Part shown: positions 28,317 to 42,984 of the stretch, piece by piece
Layout of the letters: each line of letters opens with the position of its first letter
How positions within the stretch are numbered: position 1 is the stretch's first letter
Source of the DNA: a virus
Virus record (IMG/VR): IMGVR_UViG_3300015371_000026
Coordinates: 1-64,000 of that record
DNA length: 64,000 nt
Direction: 5' to 3' (one strand)
The notes under the pieces: model-generated
What the model saw: the letters and a program-made list of their open reading frames with translations, nothing else
What the model was told of the DNA's origin: nothing
Databases searched by the model: none
Program-made: the position numbers and the translations under genes

Positions 28317-29044
28317 TGGCGTACCGGCTAACAGGCACAGACCCGTTCGTCCGCTTCTCGATCGGTGCGTTCAACGGGTACTCGATGGAGAGCGACGTCA
28401 TGTCAGCCGCCGCGCTGCTGAAGCGCCGGTCGGCGACGGCGTGGCACGGCATCCACGTCGTCGATGACGGGACTACCTCCCCGTACACGTACATCGACGA
28501 GTTCAACCCGTCGGATCAGTTAGTGGGCGGCCCGGACGGCGTCACGACCTCGGTGCAGACCTTCAACGACACCACGAACTGGATGATTGTCGGGTTCACG
28601 AAGGCTGCTGGTACGGGCGCGGGCATCGCCTGGACGTGGAGGTGGAAGATCGGCGCCGGGGCCTGGTCGTCCGAGGCTGACACCTACTCTGGCAGAACGT
28701 CGAGCGCCGGGTCAGGGTACAGACACATCATCGGCAACGAGCCCGCGCTCGGCGACGATGCTGACTTCGACATCGTCTGCGCTGGCCTGATCAAATCGCA
28801 GCTGTCGCAGGCGAGTTTTGAGAGCCTCGACATGTCGTCGTTCAGCACCTGGACATCTGTGTTTACGGGCGCGGGCGCGTGGCTGATCGGCTTCCAGGCG
28901 ATCGGCAGCCTGAGCGATAACACCGGCAACGGCGGCAACGAACTCTCTCGCTCAGCGGGGATCACGGTCGTCTCAGATCCGCCGGGCTGGTCGTGGGGAG
29001 CAGACCCTCTAGCAAAATCTGGACTAGGGATCATCGGGCCGTAG
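28316..29044 (+). CDS. ConA/LamG-like structural protein (242 aa)
   Basis: ATG overlaps the TAA of the beta-helix gene (TAATG). The fold looks like a concanavalin A-type sandwich: NWMIVGFTKAAG, then YRHIIGNEPALGDDADFDIVCAGLIKSQLSQASFESL, which corresponds to the last strands and terminal helix of such domains. Probably a glycan-binding fibre component. Ends in TAG immediately followed by an in-frame ATG. Confidence 0.6.
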   Translation: MAYRLTGTDPFVRFSIGAFNGYSMESDVMSAAALLKRRSATAWHGIHVVDDGTTSPYTYIDEFNPSDQLVGGPDGVTTSVQTFNDTTNWMIVGFTKAAGTGAGIAWTWRWKIGAGAWSSEADTYSGRTSSAGSGYRHIIGNEPALGDDADFDIVCAGLIKSQLSQASFESLDMSSFSTWTSVFTGAGAWLIGFQAIGSLSDNTGNGGNELSRSAGITVVSDPPGWSWGADPLAKSGLGIIGP

Positions 29045-32269: not shown

Positions 32270-33223
32270 ATGCCAGACCCTGACTTCACGATCGGACAGG
32301 GCGACAGCGCGGCGGTCTTGACAGGCATCGTGCTCGACCAGCAAGAGCAGCCGGTCAACATCAACGGTGCTGCGCTGCTGCTGCGCGTCGCGCCGATCGG
32401 CGGCGGCTCGCTAATCGTCTCCGGCACGGCGCATGTCGACCAGGTTGGCGACGGCTCAGACGGCACGCGCGGAGACTGGTCGTACGAGTGGAAGACCGGC
32501 GAGACCGATGTCCCCGGGTTCTACCTAGGGCAGCTCGAAGTGACGTTCCAGGGCGGGCTGACGCAGACGTTCCCAGAGCCCGGGTTCATGCTGATCAAGA
32601 TCGAGGACCAACTCCCGCTCGCGCCCGCGTACATCACGCGCGAGGAGCTGAAGCTGTCGCGCGAGATGACCGGGTACGCGTTCGAGGATCACGAGATCGA
32701 CATCGCGATCGGCGCGGCGTCGCGCGTGATCGACGACGCGACAGGTCGGCGCTACTTCGCTGACGCTGTCGCGACGAACGAGCGTCTGTACTCGGCGCGC
32801 TCGTGGCGTCGCGTCGAGATCGACGACCTGATCGAGCTGACATCGTTGGAAGTCGACCGCGACGGCGACGGCGACTACGAGGAGGTCTGGAGCGCAGACC
32901 GCTACCTACTCAACCCAGCTAACGCACCGGCTGACGGAAAGCCGTGGGACGAGATCGCCGTGCGCACTGAGAGCGGCTGGACGTTCCCGCTCGGAGCGAA
33001 TCGCATCCGCGTCACAGGGAAGTTCGGCTGGAAGGCCGTGCCGCCCGAGCTGAAGATGGCCGCGAGCATTCTCGCGCAGCGATACGTGCTTCGCCTACGG
33101 CAGGCACCGTTCGGGATCGTCTCAGCCGGGATGGAGTCTGGTGCGCTGATGCGGATCGCGCGCAACGATCCCGACGTCGCGCCGGTGCTCGACACGTTCA
33201 CTCGCAAGACCCCGTTCATCTAA
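32270..33223 (+). CDS. Head-tail connector protein with N-terminal Ig-like domain
   Basis: ATG after GAGAGGAGGCAACG. Residues 5-112 look like an Ig-like baseplate/fibre (BppU-type) domain: FTIGQGDSAAVLTGIVLDQ...FYLGQLEVTFQGGLTQTFPEPGFMLIKIEDQ. Residues 118-317 resemble the HK97 gp6-type connector: YITREELKLSREMTGYAFEDHEIDIAIGAASRVIDDATGRRYF and PPELKMAASILAQRYVLRL. The connector ring joins portal and tail. The Ig-type extension on a connector is uncommon. Confidence 0.65.
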   Translation: MPDPDFTIGQGDSAAVLTGIVLDQQEQPVNINGAALLLRVAPIGGGSLIVSGTAHVDQVGDGSDGTRGDWSYEWKTGETDVPGFYLGQLEVTFQGGLTQTFPEPGFMLIKIEDQLPLAPAYITREELKLSREMTGYAFEDHEIDIAIGAASRVIDDATGRRYFADAVATNERLYSARSWRRVEIDDLIELTSLEVDRDGDGDYEEVWSADRYLLNPANAPADGKPWDEIAVRTESGWTFPLGANRIRVTGKFGWKAVPPELKMAASILAQRYVLRLRQAPFGIVSAGMESGALMRIARNDPDVAPVLDTFTRKTPFI

Positions 33224-33634
33224 ATGGCAGACATGGAAGCAATCGCGAAGGCGCTCGCCGCGAATCTCTCGACGGCGACCGGCGTTCAGGTCACGCCGTA
33301 CGTGCTGACTAACCCAGGCTCGCCGACGTCGCACGTGTTCCCGAGTGCGATCGAGTACGACCTGGCCGGGTCGCGCGGTCTCGACCGCTGGATCTTCACC
33401 TGCCAGGTGATGATCGGTCTTGCGAGCGACATCGGCGCGCAGCTGACGCTGTACAAATATCTGTCAGAAGAACGCTCAGTGAAGACAGCGGTCGAATCTG
33501 ATCCGCAGCTGGGCGGGAGAGTTGCTGATCTGCGCGTCACACGCTGCGGCGGCGTTCAGTTCCTGACAGTCGAAGGTCGCGGTCCGTACGTTGCCGCGGA
33601 ATGGTCCATCGAGGTCTACGTACCGGGCGCGTAG
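33224..33634 (+). CDS. Tail terminator/completion-like protein (136 aa)
   Basis: ATG abuts the TAA of the connector gene. An alpha-beta protein: N-terminal helix (AIAKALAANLSTATGVQV), then WIFTCQVMIGLASDIGAQLTLYKYL and a beta-rich end (YVAAEWSIEVYV). This matches the fold order and gene position of phage tail terminator proteins, between connector and tail tube. Ends in TAG. Confidence 0.6.
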   Translation: MADMEAIAKALAANLSTATGVQVTPYVLTNPGSPTSHVFPSAIEYDLAGSRGLDRWIFTCQVMIGLASDIGAQLTLYKYLSEERSVKTAVESDPQLGGRVADLRVTRCGGVQFLTVEGRGPYVAAEWSIEVYVPGA

Positions 33635-34988: not shown

Positions 34989-37900
34989 ATGGCCGTAAAG
35001 ACCATCTTCGTCAACATTCTCGCGAACGCCAACCAGTTTAAACGTGAGCTGCGCGGCGCCGTCATCGCGACGAACGAGGCGAACATCGGTCTCAAGCGGT
35101 ACGGCAAGGCAGCTGGTGTCGCCGGGGTCGCGCTCGGCGCCGGTCTGGTCGTCGGTCTGGAGAAGTCCGCGAAGGCCGCGATGGTTGCGCAGGAGCAGAC
35201 CGCTCGACTCGACCAGGCGTTTCGTCGCTCGCATGTCGCGATGTCTGACTTTACGGGCCAGATCGACAAGGCCGAGAAGTCGTCGCGCAACCTGGGCTTC
35301 ACGAACGCTGCTGTACGCAACTCGCTCGGCTCGCTTGTGATCGCGACTCACAGCGGCAGGAAGGCGATCGCTGATCTGTCGGTGGCAGAAGATCTCGCGC
35401 GCTTCAAGCACGTCGATCTCGCGACTGCGACGAAGTCTCTGACGATGGCGATGGCCGGGTCGCAGCGCGCGCTCAAGCAGCTCGGCATCAACGTCCCGAA
35501 GGTGACGACCGCGCAGGACGCGGCACGCAAGGCGTACGACGCGGCGCGCGAGGCGATCAAACGCCACTACGACGGGATGGGCAAGCTGACGGAGGCGCAG
35601 AAGGAGCAGCGCCAGAAGGCGCTCGATCTGGCCAAGTCGAAGTACGACGGCGCGAAGGCTGACGCGAAGGTCACCGACTCGCAGTCGACCGCAGCGAAGG
35701 TGATCGCGAAGGTGCGCGACCTGATGCACGGACAGGCGGAGGCATACTCGAAGACAGCGGGCGGCGCGATGGAGAAGTACCGCGCGCAGATGGACAACCT
35801 GAAAGAGGTGATGGGCAAGGCGGTGCTACCGGCTATATCGGCGATCGCTGGTGCTCTCGCGAAGTTCTTGGGTGTGCTCTCTGATCACCCGACGCTGCTG
35901 AAGGCGCTCGCGCTCGGACTCGGGATCATGGCGGTCGCGATGATGGCGGCGGGCGCTGCGTCGTTCTTCGCGTCGTCTGCGTTGTTCACGACAACGATCG
36001 CCGTCGGCGCGCTTGAAGTCTCGCTGCTCCCGCTCGTCGCAGCGTTCGCTGTCGTCGCAGCTGCCGTCTACCTCGGGATCAAGTACTGGCCGCAGATCAA
36101 GGACGCGATGGAAGCTGTGTGGCAGTGGATCAAGAGCACGTTCGTCCCGATCTGGGAGACGCTGCGCGACGCGGCGGTTACAGCGTGGGAGAAGATCAAG
36201 AACGCGCTCGTCACTACGTGGGAGGCGATCAAGACAGCTGCGACGGTCGCGTGGGAGGCGATCAAGACGGTGATCACCACTGTCTGGAACTCGATCGTCT
36301 GGGTCTTCGAGCACCTGACGATCGCCGGTCTGATCCTGTCCCACTGGAACCAGATCAAGACGTTCACTGTCGACGTCTTCAACGCCATCGTCGGGTTCTT
36401 CAGTGCGCTACCCGGTCGTATCGCCGACGCGTTCGTCACCGCGTGGGAGGCGGTGAAGGGGAGACTGAGCGGCGCGTTCGACTGGCTGAAGACGCACGCC
36501 GGTCAGGTCATTAGCGGTGTCGTCGGCACGTTCACGTCTCTGCCTGGAAAGATCGGCGACGCGATCGGCGGTGCCATGCACTTTCTGAAGGAAAAGATCG
36601 AGTCACTGTTCGCCTGGAAGACGGTCGTCGGCTGGGTCGAGCACGCACTCGGCTTCTCTGAGCACTCCGAGTTCTTCGGTGACATCGGTATGAAGATCGT
36701 GCGAAGCATCGCGCGTGGTGTCGGTGAGGCGAAGGACCTACTCGTGAACGCGATCGAGAAGATCGCTGGGAGTCTCAACCCGTTCAGCGGAGGGTTGCAG
36801 GGCGGCGGCGTGAGCGGGAAGGGCGGCACCGGTGTTCCTACGGGCGGCGGCTCTACTCTTCCGCTGCTGCTGTCGTGGGCAAAGCAGGAGGGCATCGCTG
36901 TTACCTCGACGACGTCGGGTAACCACGTGAAGGGCAGCTTCCACTATCAGGGACGGGCGATCGACGTATCTGGATCAGCGCCGATGATGGCGAAGTTCTT
37001 CCTCGACACGATCAAGCGGTTCGGCGTCGGCAGGATCAAAGAGTTGTTCTACGACCCAATGGGCTACTTCGTCGACAACGGTCGAGCTGTGAGGGGCGCC
37101 ATCGGCGGGCACTCTGACCACGTCCATCTCGCGCTCGCCGCTGGTGGGATCGCGAACAAAGCGACGATGGCGCTGATCGGCGAGGCTGGCCCTGAGGCGG
37201 TTGTCCCGCTGCGACGCTGGGAGCAGGGCTGGCAGGAGGTCAAGCAGTCGCAGGACGACGGCTGGCGACAGCTGAGCAAGTCATACGCAGACGGCGAGGC
37301 CGAGGCGCGCGAGCGCGACGTGCGTAACGCAGCGCAGTCTGAGACGCAGACGCGGGTCACGCAAGAGCAGCTAGCAGACATGATCGCGAACATTCAGGCG
37401 CTCCCGCCGGGGTTCAACGAGGCGCTCGGGATCTTCGGCATGACCCAGCAGGTGAACGACGAGACGAATACGACGAGCGTCACCGACTCTGTCGACACCG
37501 CGTCTGTCGAGTCGTCGAGTTGGCTCTCGAAGATCTTCGACGCTGTACAGCCGCTGAACGACTCGCTCAAGAACATCGCCGATATTCTGTCGAATAGAGG
37601 CGGCGGCGGCGGCGGCAGCGGCGGCGGCGGCAGCGGCAGAGGCGGCGGCGGCGGCGGCGACGGCGGCGGCAGCGGCGGAGCCGGACAGTTCACTCAGATC
37701 TACCCAGAGGACGCCGGGTTCGTTCAGGTCGGCGGCGGCGTCGGCGACACCGGCTTGTTCGGCGGCGGCGGTGCTAAGACGTCGGGCGTCTCCTCTGCGC
37801 TCGCCGCGCTCGGTACGCTCTCGCCTCCGCACGGGATGCACCGCGACGGCCCGTTCTGGTATTCGGTCGAAGGGTCGAAGGGAATGCCCGCGCCGCTGAT

Positions 37901-38255
37901 CCCGAATATCTCGAACTGGCTCAAGCAGTACACCGGGCGCGGACTTTCACCAGCGCAAGCGATCGGGATCAACAAGTGGTGGCCCGCGCACTACCCGCAG
38001 ATCGTCAAGGGCATGGCGCGCGGCGGCGTCTTCACGAAGCCGTGGGCGGGAATGATGAGCGTCGCTGAGCGCGGGCCAGAGGGCTTCGTCCCGCTCGGTC
38101 GCGGCGACAGTCTCGGCGGCGAGGTGCACATCCATCTACACGGCGGCACGTACATCGGCGGCAGGCCGGAGCAGATCGCGCGCGACCTAGAGGGCCCGCT
38201 GCGGCAGGCGCTCTACCGCACGAAGAACAACAACGGGTCGCTGGAGTTCGGCTAG
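34989..38255 (+). CDS. Tape measure protein with peptidase-like domain
   Basis: The largest ORF for its place: 1088 residues. N-terminal helical, Ala/Lys-rich part; two or three hydrophobic segments at about 300-365; Trp-repeats every 11 residues (AWEKIKNALVTTWEAIK pattern) at 395-445. Residues 625-715 contain SFHYQGRAIDVSG and GGHSDHVHLAL, the zinc ligands of an M15/VanY-type peptidase, which could cut peptidoglycan at infection. A GGxA-x-LIGEAGPEAVVPL motif lies near 730 and a related MSVAERGPEGFVPL near the end. A Gly-Ser linker spans 870-900. It sets tail length. Confidence 0.88.
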   Translation: MAVKTIFVNILANANQFKRELRGAVIATNEANIGLKRYGKAAGVAGVALGAGLVVGLEKSAKAAMVAQEQTARLDQAFRRSHVAMSDFTGQIDKAEKSSRNLGFTNAAVRNSLGSLVIATHSGRKAIADLSVAEDLARFKHVDLATATKSLTMAMAGSQRALKQLGINVPKVTTAQDAARKAYDAAREAIKRHYDGMGKLTEAQKEQRQKALDLAKSKYDGAKADAKVTDSQSTAAKVIAKVRDLMHGQAEAYSKTAGGAMEKYRAQMDNLKEVMGKAVLPAISAIAGALAKFLGVLSDHPTLLKALALGLGIMAVAMMAAGAASFFASSALFTTTIAVGALEVSLLPLVAAFAVVAAAVYLGIKYWPQIKDAMEAVWQWIKSTFVPIWETLRDAAVTAWEKIKNALVTTWEAIKTAATVAWEAIKTVITTVWNSIVWVFEHLTIAGLILSHWNQIKTFTVDVFNAIVGFFSALPGRIADAFVTAWEAVKGRLSGAFDWLKTHAGQVISGVVGTFTSLPGKIGDAIGGAMHFLKEKIESLFAWKTVVGWVEHALGFSEHSEFFGDIGMKIVRSIARGVGEAKDLLVNAIEKIAGSLNPFSGGLQGGGVSGKGGTGVPTGGGSTLPLLLSWAKQEGIAVTSTTSGNHVKGSFHYQGRAIDVSGSAPMMAKFFLDTIKRFGVGRIKELFYDPMGYFVDNGRAVRGAIGGHSDHVHLALAAGGIANKATMALIGEAGPEAVVPLRRWEQGWQEVKQSQDDGWRQLSKSYADGEAEARERDVRNAAQSETQTRVTQEQLADMIANIQALPPGFNEALGIFGMTQQVNDETNTTSVTDSVDTASVESSSWLSKIFDAVQPLNDSLKNIADILSNRGGGGGGSGGGGSGRGGGGGGDGGGSGGAGQFTQIYPEDAGFVQVGGGVGDTGLFGGGGAKTSGVSSALAALGTLSPPHGMHRDGPFWYSVEGSKGMPAPLIPNISNWLKQYTGRGLSPAQAIGINKWWPAHYPQIVKGMARGGVFTKPWAGMMSVAERGPEGFVPLGRGDSLGGEVHIHLHGGTYIGGRPEQIARDLEGPLRQALYRTKNNNGSLEFG
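37600..37682 (+). repeat. GGC-rich microsatellite coding a Gly/Ser linker
   Basis: A run of GGC codons broken by AGC, AGA and GAC encodes a flexible Gly/Ser stretch (about residues 871-898) in the tape measure protein. It is the most repetitive DNA in the window and is prone to slippage in replication and sequencing. It separates the peptidase-bearing region from the C-terminal domain. Confidence 0.8.
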
Positions 38256-40820
38256 ATGACGACGTTCCAGAAGGCCAACGCTGGTCTTCTGGTGCGGGGC
38301 GGTGCGGGCGCATGGATGACGCCGCCGAAGTGGTCGGGCCGCGCGGGCATGGCGCAGCTGATCAGCGAGGTCGACTGGCTCGGCAACCCGACGGCTCCGT
38401 ATCGCGACCAGGTGCAGTACGCCGACGGCTGTACGAGCTACTGGCGCTTCGCGTCTGAGTCGCAGTTTCCAGACGAGCAGGGCATAGGAACGGGCACGAT
38501 CAACGGCGGGACGCGCGTCAATCCCGGATTACTCCCGTACGATCCCGACCCGGCGCTGACGTTCAACGGCAGTAGCCAGTACGCGAACGTCGTCGGCCCG
38601 TACAACCAGGCGGGCTCATGGTCTGTCATGGGCTGGCTGCGCTTCGCGTCGCTTCCCGGTGCGCTCAAGCCGATCTTCGCCAAGGACGCGTACAAGCTGG
38701 AGATCGACTCGGGCGGACACCTGGTGTTCACCGTGATCAACCACGTATCGGGCGGCTCGACGATGACGCAGGTGACGAGTCATACGGTGCTGACCGCGAA
38801 CACGATCTACCACGTCGCCTGTACCCATGTGTCCGGGGTCGGGATCAATCTCTACATCAACGGCGTGCTCGACAACACCGCCGCACATACGATCGGGGCG
38901 GAGTTGTGGGGGTTGCCGCTGCTGTTCGGCGCTCGCCACTCCGGCACCTCTCCGTCGTTCGGAACGGTTGGCACCTCCACGATAGGCGGCTCGACCGCCT
39001 ACACGATCACCGCGCCAGCGAGCATCGCCAGCGGCGACCTGCTCGTGGCGTACCTGTTCGGAGCGCCAGGTGCGGGGCAAGCGCTGGTGACTGCTGTACC
39101 GGCAGGCTGGATCCGGCTCGACTCGTCGATCAATGTGCTCGGCACTGGTGAGTTCAACGAGCTGTACTACAAGATCGCCGGAGCGGGTGACGTAGGTGCG
39201 GGGTCGTACACGTGGACGACGAACATCAACGTGTTCGGCAGCGGGAGCATCACGCGATTCACCGGCGTGGACACGACCAGCCCCTTCGCCAATCCTCCCT
39301 ACGCGCTCGTTAGCAACGTGACGAACCACTCCGGCGGGACGAACGTCCCTCTGTGCGACGATACGCTCGCTGTCGCATACATCGGGGCTAGCAGCGGGGC
39401 GTTCTCATCGAGCATCGGCACAGAACGCTATGACTTCTCTGGGCAGGGCAACTACGCGATGTACACGCTGGCTGTGGGTGCGGCGGCGACAACGGAGTTT
39501 GTGATCAGCGGTGCCGGTCCGGCTAACGACATCGTCCGCACCCTGTTCCTGAAGGGCCCCGACGCTCAAGACTTCAACGCTGTCACGCTCGACGAGTGGT
39601 CGTTCCACACGATCGCGCTTAGCGCAGACGGCGTGCGCGGCTACTACGAGGCGAGGCTCTCGGGTGTCGCTCGCTGGGAGGAGCTGCTGCACAACAACCT
39701 CCCCGACGTGCGCACGCTCCAGTTCCAGTACGGGCGACAGTACGAGCTGAACAGGATGGAAGGCGGAGGCGGGAGCGCGCCGATCAAGAACCAGACGCGC
39801 GACTACGACCCAGCGAACACCAACTCTGCGCACTACCCGTACGTCAAGCCGAACCGCAAGATCCGCTTCCGCGCCTACTACAGCGGGCGCTACTACCCGC
39901 TGTTCCAGGGACTCGTCGAGCGCTGGCCGTCGAGCTGGGATCAGCCCTCGTACGACGAGATGAAGGTCACGCTAGCGGACGGTTTCAGACAGCTCCAACG
40001 CGCGGGCGTCTCGGGTCAGCTCAGCGCAGCACAGAGCGGCGCGCAGATCAACGAGCTGCTCCGACGCGCGCTCTGGTCGCAGAGCAACCGCGCCATTGAC
40101 CCGGGCTTCTACACGATGGCCGCCGACACGTCGCCCGGCATCGCTGAGGCGAAAGGGCTGATCGAAGACATCGCCGACTCCGAGCTGGGGATCTTCTTCA
40201 TCGACCACACGCAGCCGGGGTCGCCCGCGACCCACCACGACAGTCGACACCGCTGGACTGTGTCGCGCAGCTCAGTCGCGCAGGCGACGTTCGCAGACGA
40301 CGGGAGCGGCATCTACTTCCAGCAGCTCGACCCGTCCGACGACGACGACAACATGGCGAACGAGTGGCAGGTCACGTCCGCGAACGGTACGCTCGGGTCC
40401 GCGGTCGATCCCGTCTCTCGCGTCGAGAACTACCCCGTAACCAAGACGCGCTCGACACGGTTGGACAACCCGCTCGACGCAGAGGCGCAGGCGCGAGCGC
40501 TACTGCTCGACACCGCGCGCCCGATGCTGCGCTTCGACAAACTCGTCGTGCGCATGGGCGGGAATACCGCAGCGATCGTCTGGCAAACATGCCTGTCCCT
40601 CGCGATCAGCGACCTCGTGCTCGTCGTCAAGTCGCCTGTGCCGTCCGCTGGCGGGTCGACGATCACGCGCTACTGCTTCATCGAGGGCATCGGCTGGGAC
40701 ATCCAGCCGAACTACTGGGAGGTCAGCTACCAGCTCTCGCCGCAGGGGACGCTGCCGTTCATCGACGCGGCGCTGCTACTCGAACCCGTCTCGTACTGGC
40801 GGTTCGACACCACCACCTAG
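38256..40820 (+). CDS. Distal tail/hub protein with split LamG domain (854 aa)
   Basis: ATG abuts the tape measure TAG in frame. Residues 1-55 are a tail-attachment segment. A LamG sandwich starts at SYWRFASES (about 58), runs to LLFGARHSG (about 232), and resumes at about 435 (TLDEWSFHTIALS); between them sits a separate beta domain (VPAGWIRLDSSINV...; YYKIAGAGDVGAGSYTW) of about 200 residues. Residues 460-835 are the hub-like part (RTLQFQYGRQYELNRMEGG; YPLFQGLVERWPSSWD; YNPV-type region), typical of actinophage minor tail proteins. The last residues (LLEPVSYWRF) start another LamG domain, cut by TAG. Confidence 0.75.
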   Translation: MTTFQKANAGLLVRGGAGAWMTPPKWSGRAGMAQLISEVDWLGNPTAPYRDQVQYADGCTSYWRFASESQFPDEQGIGTGTINGGTRVNPGLLPYDPDPALTFNGSSQYANVVGPYNQAGSWSVMGWLRFASLPGALKPIFAKDAYKLEIDSGGHLVFTVINHVSGGSTMTQVTSHTVLTANTIYHVACTHVSGVGINLYINGVLDNTAAHTIGAELWGLPLLFGARHSGTSPSFGTVGTSTIGGSTAYTITAPASIASGDLLVAYLFGAPGAGQALVTAVPAGWIRLDSSINVLGTGEFNELYYKIAGAGDVGAGSYTWTTNINVFGSGSITRFTGVDTTSPFANPPYALVSNVTNHSGGTNVPLCDDTLAVAYIGASSGAFSSSIGTERYDFSGQGNYAMYTLAVGAAATTEFVISGAGPANDIVRTLFLKGPDAQDFNAVTLDEWSFHTIALSADGVRGYYEARLSGVARWEELLHNNLPDVRTLQFQYGRQYELNRMEGGGGSAPIKNQTRDYDPANTNSAHYPYVKPNRKIRFRAYYSGRYYPLFQGLVERWPSSWDQPSYDEMKVTLADGFRQLQRAGVSGQLSAAQSGAQINELLRRALWSQSNRAIDPGFYTMAADTSPGIAEAKGLIEDIADSELGIFFIDHTQPGSPATHHDSRHRWTVSRSSVAQATFADDGSGIYFQQLDPSDDDDNMANEWQVTSANGTLGSAVDPVSRVENYPVTKTRSTRLDNPLDAEAQARALLLDTARPMLRFDKLVVRMGGNTAAIVWQTCLSLAISDLVLVVKSPVPSAGGSTITRYCFIEGIGWDIQPNYWEVSYQLSPQGTLPFIDAALLLEPVSYWRFDTTT

Positions 40821-41993
40821 ATGGACGACGTACTTAGAAGAAACCCAGCCGTAGTGACCGGCAGCCCGTCGCTGCAGACCGGCCCGCTGACGCTCCCGTC
40901 GCAGGGGCTTCGGCTCGCTGGGACAGACACGTGGGTGGTCGCCGACTCTCCGTCGTCGTCGCTCCCTGTCGGAGACGGAGTCGCGGGCGGCATGACGATC
41001 GCGGGATGGGTGCGCGTCACCTCCTGGCCCGCGTCGCTCAAGAACCTGCTCGCGAAGTCTGGCAGCTACGGGGTTGCGATGACGACAGCCGGGAAGATCG
41101 AGCTGACGTTCGCGAACGGAGCGAACTCGGTGACGCTCGATTCGCTCGCCGTGCTCCAGACGAACGTCTGGTACCACGTCGCGTGCGTCTACAACGGCGG
41201 CTATCTCGGGCCTCCCAAGTTCGGGAAGACAGTCGCGGGCGCAGGTGGCATCGGTATCCCCGGCGACTACCGAGCTGGCGCAGCGCAGGGGAGCGCCAAC
41301 AACCTGCAGGTGTGCAGGTTCCAGGCCCTAGAGCGCGGCCAGGTGACGCAGCTCTCGCTGCGCCTGTCGATCGAGGCGAGCGCGCCGTACGCGCAGGACG
41401 TCGCGGCGGTCGCCTACGCAGACGCGGCTGGTCCCGCGCCGGGAGCGAAGCTCGCGCAGTCAGACGGGCAGTACCTCGTCTCGACGACGTTCGGCGGACC
41501 GATCCCGCTCAACAACGTCGGCTCAGTCTGGGTCGTCTTCCCCGTCGACTTTCTAATCGCGCAGGGCATCTACTACTGGCTCGGGTTCGCGGGCGGCGCG
41601 ATCCACGCGAGCGACACCACCGTGCTGATCATCAGCGACGACGCCACGGGCGGCACGCGCAAGATCAAGCACTCCCAGGTGAGCGTCGGCGCGACGGGCC
41701 CGGCGTCGCAGGCTGTCGCAGATCCGTTCGGGACAGCGGCGAGCAGTGACGCTGTCAACTTCGACGTCTTCGCTGACTACACGCCGACGGGCCGTACCGG
41801 CGCTGAGCAGCTCGCGCTGATCTACATCAACGGCGCGCTCGACAACTCGACGAGCTACGGGCACGGGATCGCAGATAGCGCGAACGCGCTGCAGCACGCC
41901 TCCGGCGACGCGGCCTGCGACCTCAAGGACTGGATGATCTGGGACAGGCCGCTCGCGCCGAACGAGATCGCGCGCCTGTACGCGTGCCGCTGA
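40821..41993 (+). CDS. LamG tail protein with nested domain (390 aa)
   Basis: ATG follows the TAG at 40818-40820 in frame. The first LamG strand (SYWRF) is encoded upstream of that TAG, so the domain appears to span the stop. MTIAGWVRVTSWPASLKNLLAKSG and NVWYHVACVYNG belong to the LamG. At about residue 132 a different beta domain is inserted (FGKTVAGAGGIGIPGDY; QVTQLSLRLSIEA; IYYWLGFAGG), and the LamG resumes near 335 (LALIYINGALDN; DWMIWDRPLAPNEIARLY). Likely a glycan-binding tail tip protein. Confidence 0.65.
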   Translation: MDDVLRRNPAVVTGSPSLQTGPLTLPSQGLRLAGTDTWVVADSPSSSLPVGDGVAGGMTIAGWVRVTSWPASLKNLLAKSGSYGVAMTTAGKIELTFANGANSVTLDSLAVLQTNVWYHVACVYNGGYLGPPKFGKTVAGAGGIGIPGDYRAGAAQGSANNLQVCRFQALERGQVTQLSLRLSIEASAPYAQDVAAVAYADAAGPAPGAKLAQSDGQYLVSTTFGGPIPLNNVGSVWVVFPVDFLIAQGIYYWLGFAGGAIHASDTTVLIISDDATGGTRKIKHSQVSVGATGPASQAVADPFGTAASSDAVNFDVFADYTPTGRTGAEQLALIYINGALDNSTSYGHGIADSANALQHASGDAACDLKDWMIWDRPLAPNEIARLYACR

Positions 41994-42223
41994 TGCAGAG
42001 GCTTCGCTTCCAGCCGGTCAGCGACGCACAGCGCGTAGAGGAGCAGGAGCGCTTAGAGGCGTGCGAGCGTATGCGTGGGCGGATCGACGACCTGCTCGCC
42101 GCCGCGGACCTGATCGACTCGGGCATAGCTACAGCGCAGCAGCAGCGAGACGCGCTCGTGATGTCGCTGCGCGGTGTCGCGCACATGGCCCGCTACCTGC
42201 TCGGCCAGTACGCCGACTATTGA
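41993..42223 (+). CDS. Small helical protein (76 aa)
   Basis: ATG overlaps the preceding TGA (TGATG); GTG 41984 is an alternative. Long charged helix (DAQRVEEQERLEACERMRGRIDDLL) suggests a coiled coil, followed by a shorter helix. It lies between tail tip and endolysin; role unknown. Confidence 0.5.
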   Translation: MQRLRFQPVSDAQRVEEQERLEACERMRGRIDDLLAAADLIDSGIATAQQQRDALVMSLRGVAHMARYLLGQYADY

Positions 42224-42234
42224 GAGGAGCCACG

Positions 42235-42984
42235 TTGCGTCGACTTTCGCTAACCACTCCACACATGCACGGACCCGACGTGCTCGCGCTCCAGCACCTG
42301 CTAGAGCAGCGCGGCTACCTCGCGGCGAATCTCGACGACGGGGAGTACGGCCCCGTCACTGCGCAGGCCGTTTATCGCGCCAAGTACTGGCTCGGCTATC
42401 GCAGCCCCGACCACTCGGCTGGACCGATGCTCGTCTCGTACCTGAAGCGTGAGCGCAAGCCGACGCTGCTGATGGCTCGACGCACGCTGCTGCGCAGGCG
42501 GAAGCGAAAAGACAAGCCGCTGCGCCTGAAGGCGCTCTCGCGGCTGAAGACGCACATCGGGGAGAAGGAGCACCCGCCGGGTTCTAACCGTATGCCTTGG
42601 GCGACGGGATGGTACGGACTCGTCGGGCCCTGGTGCGCGATGGCGGTCAGCCACGCGTACGTCGAGGCTGGCTCGAAGGCCTTTCGGCAGGGACGTCGAT
42701 ACGCCTACGTGCCGTACATCGTCGAAGACGCGCGAGCTGGTCGCAACAACCTCGCGCTCACGCATCTACCTATGCCCGGCGACATCGTCTGTTACGACTG
42801 GGACGGCGATCACCGCGCTGACCACACCGGGCTGTTCGACGGCTGGATCGCCGGAGCGGAGGGTTCAGAGTTCAACGCCATCGAGGCGAACACCGGCGTA
42901 GGAAACGACAGCAACGGAGGAGAAGTTATGAGCAGGCAGCGCAAGATCAGTCAGGTGCAAGCGTTCGTTCACGTGGGAGCGTAG
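42235..42984 (+). CDS. Endolysin: peptidoglycan-binding + CHAP-like domain
   Basis: TTG start chosen because GAGAGGAG lies just upstream. Residues 9-70 form a PG_binding_1 domain (HGPDVLALQHLLEQRGYL...DGEYGPVTAQAVYRAKYWLG). A basic linker (80-100) leads to a Cys-His peptidase domain: Cys134 in PWCAMAVSHAY, His197 in ADHTGLF and an acidic residue near 217 (NAIEANTG). This fold cuts peptidoglycan amide bonds. It starts the lysis module. Ends in TAG with the next ORF in frame. Confidence 0.82.
   Translation: MRRLSLTTPHMHGPDVLALQHLLEQRGYLAANLDDGEYGPVTAQAVYRAKYWLGYRSPDHSAGPMLVSYLKRERKPTLLMARRTLLRRRKRKDKPLRLKALSRLKTHIGEKEHPPGSNRMPWATGWYGLVGPWCAMAVSHAYVEAGSKAFRQGRRYAYVPYIVEDARAGRNNLALTHLPMPGDIVCYDWDGDHRADHTGLFDGWIAGAEGSEFNAIEANTGVGNDSNGGEVMSRQRKISQVQAFVHVGA

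What the first reader, a model, noticed from the sequence alone, without database searches (positions are those of the whole stretch)
40770..41050. In-frame TAG splits a LamG domain between two tail genes
The gene at 38256 ends LLEPVSYWRFDTTT and then TAG (40818-40820). The next gene starts at the very next base, in the same frame, and its first 60 residues read as the continuation of a LamG domain. The SYWRF strand is on one side and GLRLAGTDTWVV, GWVRVTSWP on the other. The first LamG of the upstream gene (SYWRFASES...ALTFNGSSQYANVV...GWLRF) shows the same order without a stop. Thus the stop falls inside a domain, suggesting amber readthrough or a split gene.
Basis: partly seen in the sequence, partly recalled or inferred. 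Interest (0 to 1): 0.72.

Follow-up and report, generated by a model that had tools for sequence, protein, structure and literature searches.

The report
Coupled tail genes split a lectin-like domain
In this phage the stop codon between two tail genes is most likely a true gene end followed at once by a second, separately started gene for a lectin-like protein; the odd part is that the first strand of that protein's domain seems to have been left on the end of the gene before it.

Summary
Gene 1 (38256-40820, 854 aa) ends ...LLEPVSYWRFDTTT-TAG, and the ATG of gene 2 (40821-41993, 390 aa) follows with no gap. Both sides resemble the start of LamG domains, in the right order and spacing. A second contig (L003) keeps TAGATG.

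Amber readthrough is not supported. (1) Zero-spaced TAG|ATG is this phage's habit: six such junctions plus one TAA|ATG; "in frame" then follows automatically. (2) Relatives of gene 1's tail-hub domain (about 45 distinct C-termini in the main scan) end at the same place with their own stop. The one relative with the same tail (L009, ...DSPVSYWRMDSLT-TGA) has no LamG after its stop. (3) mRNA around gene 2's start is among the least structured in the window (6 of 7106 windows as open), typical of a real start site. (4) No stimulator structure or tRNA gene was found.

Best reading: two translationally coupled genes, a gp27/VgrG-like hub carrying an N-terminal LamG, and a separate LamG protein cut just after strand 1. 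Gene 1's last ~23 residues are predicted to lie free of the hub fold, so they may dock gene 2 by supplying that strand; this is untested.

The parts
38256..40820 (+). gene 1: tail hub protein, 854 aa; N-terminal LamG (SYWRF at residue 61, Pfam match 104-233), C-terminal gp27/VgrG-like hub domain; ends SYWRFDTTT-TAG
38436..38954 (+). uninterrupted LamG1 of gene 1, the comparison for the split one
39663..40742 (+). hub domain of gene 1, modelled with pLDDT 80 and pTM 0.80, ordered to about residue 360 of the modelled stretch
40749..40817 (+). free C-terminal tail of gene 1 (about 23 residues, pLDDT about 33-41) with the LamG strand-1-like SYWRFD
40818..40823 (+). abutting stop and start, TAG|ATG
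40806..40856 (+). unstructured, GC-poor start region of gene 2 (MFE -2.1 kcal/mol; weak SD)
40821..41993 (+). gene 2: separate LamG (concanavalin A-like) protein, 390 aa, lacking strand 1, with a long insertion inside the domain
41993..42223 (+). gene 3, 76 aa, start overlaps the stop of gene 2 (TGATG)

Best explanation
Two separate, translationally coupled tail genes. The ribosome that finishes the hub protein (gene 1) at TAG re-initiates at the abutting ATG and makes gene 2, a LamG (concanavalin A-like, presumably sugar-binding) protein of the tail tip. Shown: the junction type, the open start region, the family-wide end of the hub gene. Inferred: re-initiation itself, location and sugar binding. 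The LamG module was probably once continuous with the end of gene 1 and is now cut just after its first beta-strand, so that strand 1 (SYWRFD) sits on gene 1's free C-terminal tail (supported by similarity, not proven). Untested extension: the tail docks gene 2 by supplying the missing strand.
For: Relatives of the hub domain end their gene at the equivalent place, each with its own stop; L009, about 35% identical, ends SYWRMDSLT-TGA at the same codon without a LamG behind. TAG|ATG recurs six times and TAA|ATG once; L009 has TAG|ATG before its hub gene. The 51 bases around ATG 40821 fold at -2.1 kcal/mol, the most open of 32 starts, and 6 of 7106 windows are as open; GC3 of codons 2-12 is 0.45 against 0.87 in the gene; the same LamG stretch inside ORFs is not open, -10.4 and -10.8. 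Coupled starts at distances of -8 to +6 nt are typical of termination-reinitiation and an SD is not always needed (PMC10666635, PMC6728339). Both sides of the stop resemble LamG heads.
Against: No expression data. The SD of gene 2 is weak (-2.2 kcal/mol), so initiation may be poor. Without strand 1 gene 2's LamG would be incomplete, although other phage LamG proteins also start without a YWR strand (L131, L135). The hub relatives have no LamG gene next, so they are no direct model for this pair. The junction is seen in one phage only.
Confidence: 0.72

Rival explanations
1. Amber readthrough: some ribosomes read the TAG and make a 1245-residue hub-LamG fusion as a minor tail component, as Q-beta does with its coat extension; gene 2 alone may also be made.
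For: The frame stays open and the joined protein gives a complete LamG with correct order and spacing. The SD of gene 2 is weak.
Against: No stable structure behind the stop (-1.5 to -2.1 kcal/mol), no Rfam element, no tRNA gene in the record. L009 keeps the same tail and stop with no LamG to read into. Six TAG|ATG junctions include pairs of clearly different proteins such as tape measure | hub. The open start region argues for initiation.
Confidence: 0.1
2. The LamG likeness of gene 1's last residues is incidental: SYWRFD is simply this phage's version of the hub family's conserved C-terminal tail (LD....G[RK]LD...L.Y), and gene 2 is an unrelated insertion of a LamG gene that never had strand 1.
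For: The tail stands at the same alignment position as the family tails and is weakly similar to them (L009 tail against L048, 0.1% of shuffles; window tail 1-7%). A family member has SYWILD inside (L010). Phage LamG proteins without a YWR strand exist.
Against: The tail is more like LamG heads than family tails are, and the post-stop residues separately match a LamG head; L009's tail YYQTIMRDSPVSYWRMDS has the full look of a LamG start.
Confidence: 0.16
3. Recent nonsense mutation or sequence error in a single fused gene.
For: A single base separates TAG from sense codons (sequence).
Against: L003 carries the same TAG; L009 ends at the same codon; the start region looks adapted for initiation; relatives end here too.
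Confidence: 0.02

Closest known systems
Translational coupling by termination-reinitiation (PMC6728339, PMC10666635)
   Same: Same-strand neighbours with stop and start within the -8 to +6 nt range; SD helpful but not always needed; enriched among subunits of complexes
   Different: Spacing is exactly 0 (TAG|ATG) rather than the commoner -4 or -1 overlaps, and the cut seems to fall inside a domain; coupling itself not measured
gp27/VgrG-like tail hub proteins (T4 gp27, Mu-like tail protein 3cdd/3d37, contractile injection system hubs 7aef, 7b5h, 6j0m)
   Same: Fold of gene 1's C-terminal domain (Foldseek E down to 2e-16) and its place after the tape measure gene
   Different: Carries an N-terminal LamG with an insertion and a free tail with a LamG strand-like sequence
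Laminin_G_3 / concanavalin A-like lectin domains of phage tails
   Same: Pfam match in both genes
   Different: Gene 2 lacks the YWR first strand on its own chain and has a long insertion
Stop codon readthrough in phages (Q-beta coat extension A1)
   Same: An in-frame open frame follows the stop and would give a structural fusion
   Different: An ATG abuts the stop, the start region is open, and no readthrough signal or conserved extension was found
Donor-strand complementation (pili; TasA, PMC9674648)
   Same: A terminal strand of one chain could complete the sheet of the next protein
   Different: Not shown here; no model of the complex

Membership tests
Translationally coupled gene pair | Same strand, stop and start overlapping or within a few bases | tested here: met
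   TAG|ATG, spacing 0, one of seven such junctions
Translationally coupled gene pair | Downstream translation depends on upstream translation | not testable with these tools
   needs a reporter assay
Programmed stop codon readthrough | Stimulating context or structure at the stop | tested here: not met
   least structured stretch of the gene, no Rfam match; the context of the codon itself was not measured
Programmed stop codon readthrough | Extension conserved behind the same stop in homologues | tested here: not met
   L009 and the other relatives have no LamG behind the stop
Programmed stop codon readthrough | Fusion protein present | not testable with these tools
   needs proteomics
gp27/VgrG-like tail hub | Hub fold | tested here: met
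   confident model and Foldseek matches
gp27/VgrG-like tail hub | Gene placed after the tape measure gene | tested here: met
   tape measure at 34989-38255 directly upstream
Laminin_G_3 domain (gene 2) | Profile score above the curated cut-off | tested here: met
   49.8 bits against 27.6
Donor-strand complementation | Sheet of one chain completed by a strand of another chain | tested here: inconclusive
   tail is free of the hub model but the LamG model was too weak to place it (pLDDT 44)

The most novel reading that the evidence does not exclude
A lectin-like domain split between two coupled genes, in which the free C-terminal tail of the phage hub supplies the first beta-strand of a separately made LamG protein and so clips it to the tail tip without a covalent bond; the conserved tails of the whole hub family may be docking peptides of a similar kind.
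Probability: 0.2. Interest if true: 0.6.

Novelty: new variant of a known kind. Interest (0 to 1): 0.33.

Why it matters
It is a clear case where a stop inside an apparent domain is not evidence of readthrough: where a phage abuts stop and start codons, 'in frame' is guaranteed, and where the gene family ends is the better test. If the strand-docking idea holds, it would suggest how hub proteins of this large family recruit exchangeable lectin-like proteins through their conserved free tails, testable with two small proteins.

Tried and rejected
Genome-wide TAG recoding: rejected, TAG ends 22 of 90 heuristic genes, also between clearly different proteins. Assembly error: L003 agrees. Structure of the joined LamG2 with TAG read as Q: pLDDT 44, not used as evidence. 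A joint alignment of hub and LamG rows misplaced the LamG rows and was dropped. A first hub job held two rows from public phage records, which the tool does not accept; the job was rebuilt without them. Prokaryote genome collection: no relatives in two scans. Known phages: only remote hub hits. A DNA pattern for P-[VIMT]-[SA]-Y-W-R-x-D-xxx-stop found only L003 and L009 in the viral contigs. Rfam: nothing near the junction. Whether L009's next gene corresponds to the window's gene 3 could not be settled, since the contig ends after 30 codons. Literature searches found no described case of a LamG split this way in the open-access library; that is no proof of absence.

Full report
What is there. 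The window lies in a 67,391-base virus record of 66% GC. Downstream of a tape measure gene (34989-38255) come gene 1 (38256-40820), gene 2 (40821-41993), a 76-aa gene 3 (41993-42223) and an endolysin. Gene 1 ends SYWRFDTTT-TAG and gene 2 begins with the next base. Contig L003 under another IMG sample number has 2 differences in 4029 bases and the same TAGATG; L003, L036 and L037 come from adjacent sample numbers, so their reads may not be fully independent of each other or of the window's.

Is the LamG likeness real? Gene 1 has a LamG near its N terminus with SYWRF at residue 61 and a Pfam match at 104-233; gene 2 matches the same family. Pfam's model begins after the SYWRF strand, so in Pfam's terms the match of gene 2 lies wholly in gene 2. 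Beyond Pfam, the pre-stop tail resembles the LamG1 head of gene 1 (0.2% of 3000 shuffles) and, separately, the first 34 residues after the stop resemble the LamG1 head of relative L009 (0.2%), in matching order and with one residue's difference in spacing. The post-stop part does not match the window's own LamG1 head significantly. I take a once-continuous LamG module as likely, not certain.

What the relatives say. The C-terminal part of gene 1 is modelled with confidence (pLDDT 80, pTM 0.80) and has the fold of tail hubs of contractile injection systems, Mu-like phages, VgrG and T4 gp27. Scans of viral contigs listed 29 and 80 relatives. Those whose gene end is on the contig stop shortly after the last hub strand, mostly 23-29 residues on and with a tail of the form LD....G[RK]LD...L.Y. 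Of the relatives scanned with a LamG profile, only the window and L009 contain one, and only the window has one after the hub. L009, about 35% identical over the hub part, has a LamG at its N terminus, a TAG|ATG junction to its own tape measure, and ends YYQTIMRDSPVSYWRMDSLT-TGA at the same codon as the window; a different ORF overlaps that stop and no LamG follows in any frame in the remaining 90 bases. So the stop stands where this family of genes ends.

How gene 2 is started. Zero-spaced stop|ATG junctions are a habit of this phage: TAG|ATG at 29042, 31568, 38253, 40818 and, on the minus strand, 48973 and 44743, and TAA|ATG at 33221. Any such junction is in frame by construction. Gene 2's SD is weak (-2.2 kcal/mol), as it is at 33224 and 41993. 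The 51 bases around its ATG fold at -2.1 kcal/mol, the most open of 32 starts tested, and only 6 of 7106 windows of the sequence are as open. Codons 2-12 have GC3 0.45 where the gene has 0.87, and the homologous LamG heads inside ORFs are not open (-10.4 and -10.8). Open start regions help initiation where the SD is weak (general knowledge), and coupling by termination-reinitiation does not strictly need an SD (PMC6728339) and is typical for spacings from -8 to +6 nt (PMC10666635). This points to two proteins. Nothing found points to readthrough: no structure behind the stop, no Rfam element, no tRNA gene, no conserved extension.

Mechanism. Shown: junction type, open start region, family-wide gene end, hub fold, LamG likeness on both sides. 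Inferred: termination-reinitiation, tail-tip location and sugar binding of gene 2. Open: what gene 1's tail does. The model leaves residues 363-385 (SYWRF included) off the hub with pLDDT about 33-41. In the family this tail is about as conserved as the hub domain itself (mean column entropy 1.77 in both), which suggests that it does something, perhaps docking. In this phage it carries the strand that gene 2's LamG lacks, so strand donation is an attractive idea. Against it: the joined LamG model was too poor to test it, L009 keeps the tail with no LamG gene next to it, other phage LamG proteins lack the YWR strand too, and the tail also bears some likeness to ordinary family tails.

Verdict. 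Observation confirmed; readthrough not supported; a LamG split across two coupled genes is likely. Ordinary in its translation, unusual in where the domain is cut.

Noticed in passing
29042, 31568, 33221, 38253, 40818 (+); 48973, 44743 (-): Zero-spaced stop|ATG junctions, six TAG|ATG and one TAA|ATG, recur in this phage; most others carry a better SD than gene 2.
   Followed up: yes
L013:832-1000, L014:2974-3100, L010:4623-5849, and C-termini of most hub relatives: The hub family's C-terminal motif LD....G[RK]LD...L.Y recurs near the N terminus of some members (FRLNDPVKGKLDN, FVLDDPVAGVLDG) and inside L010 (SYWILDTGKLDTTTRLSY); it lies outside the folded hub domain in the model of the window protein.
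   Followed up: partly
42061-42984: The mechanical GTG start of the endolysin ORF is probably wrong; a TTG at 42235 follows GAGAGGAGCCACG and gives MRRLSLTTPHMHGPDV..., directly behind gene 3.
   Followed up: partly
L003:717 and 810 (window 38541 and 38634): The two differences between L003 and the window are both missense in LamG1 (D to N, and W to G at the conserved GW); the second may be an error or a real variant.
   Followed up: no
L009:2490-3200 and window 38950-39600: The N-terminal LamG1 domains of the two related hub proteins carry insertions at different points, an extra stretch of about 170 residues before the core in L009 and a shared GDLLVA... domain after it in both.
   Followed up: no
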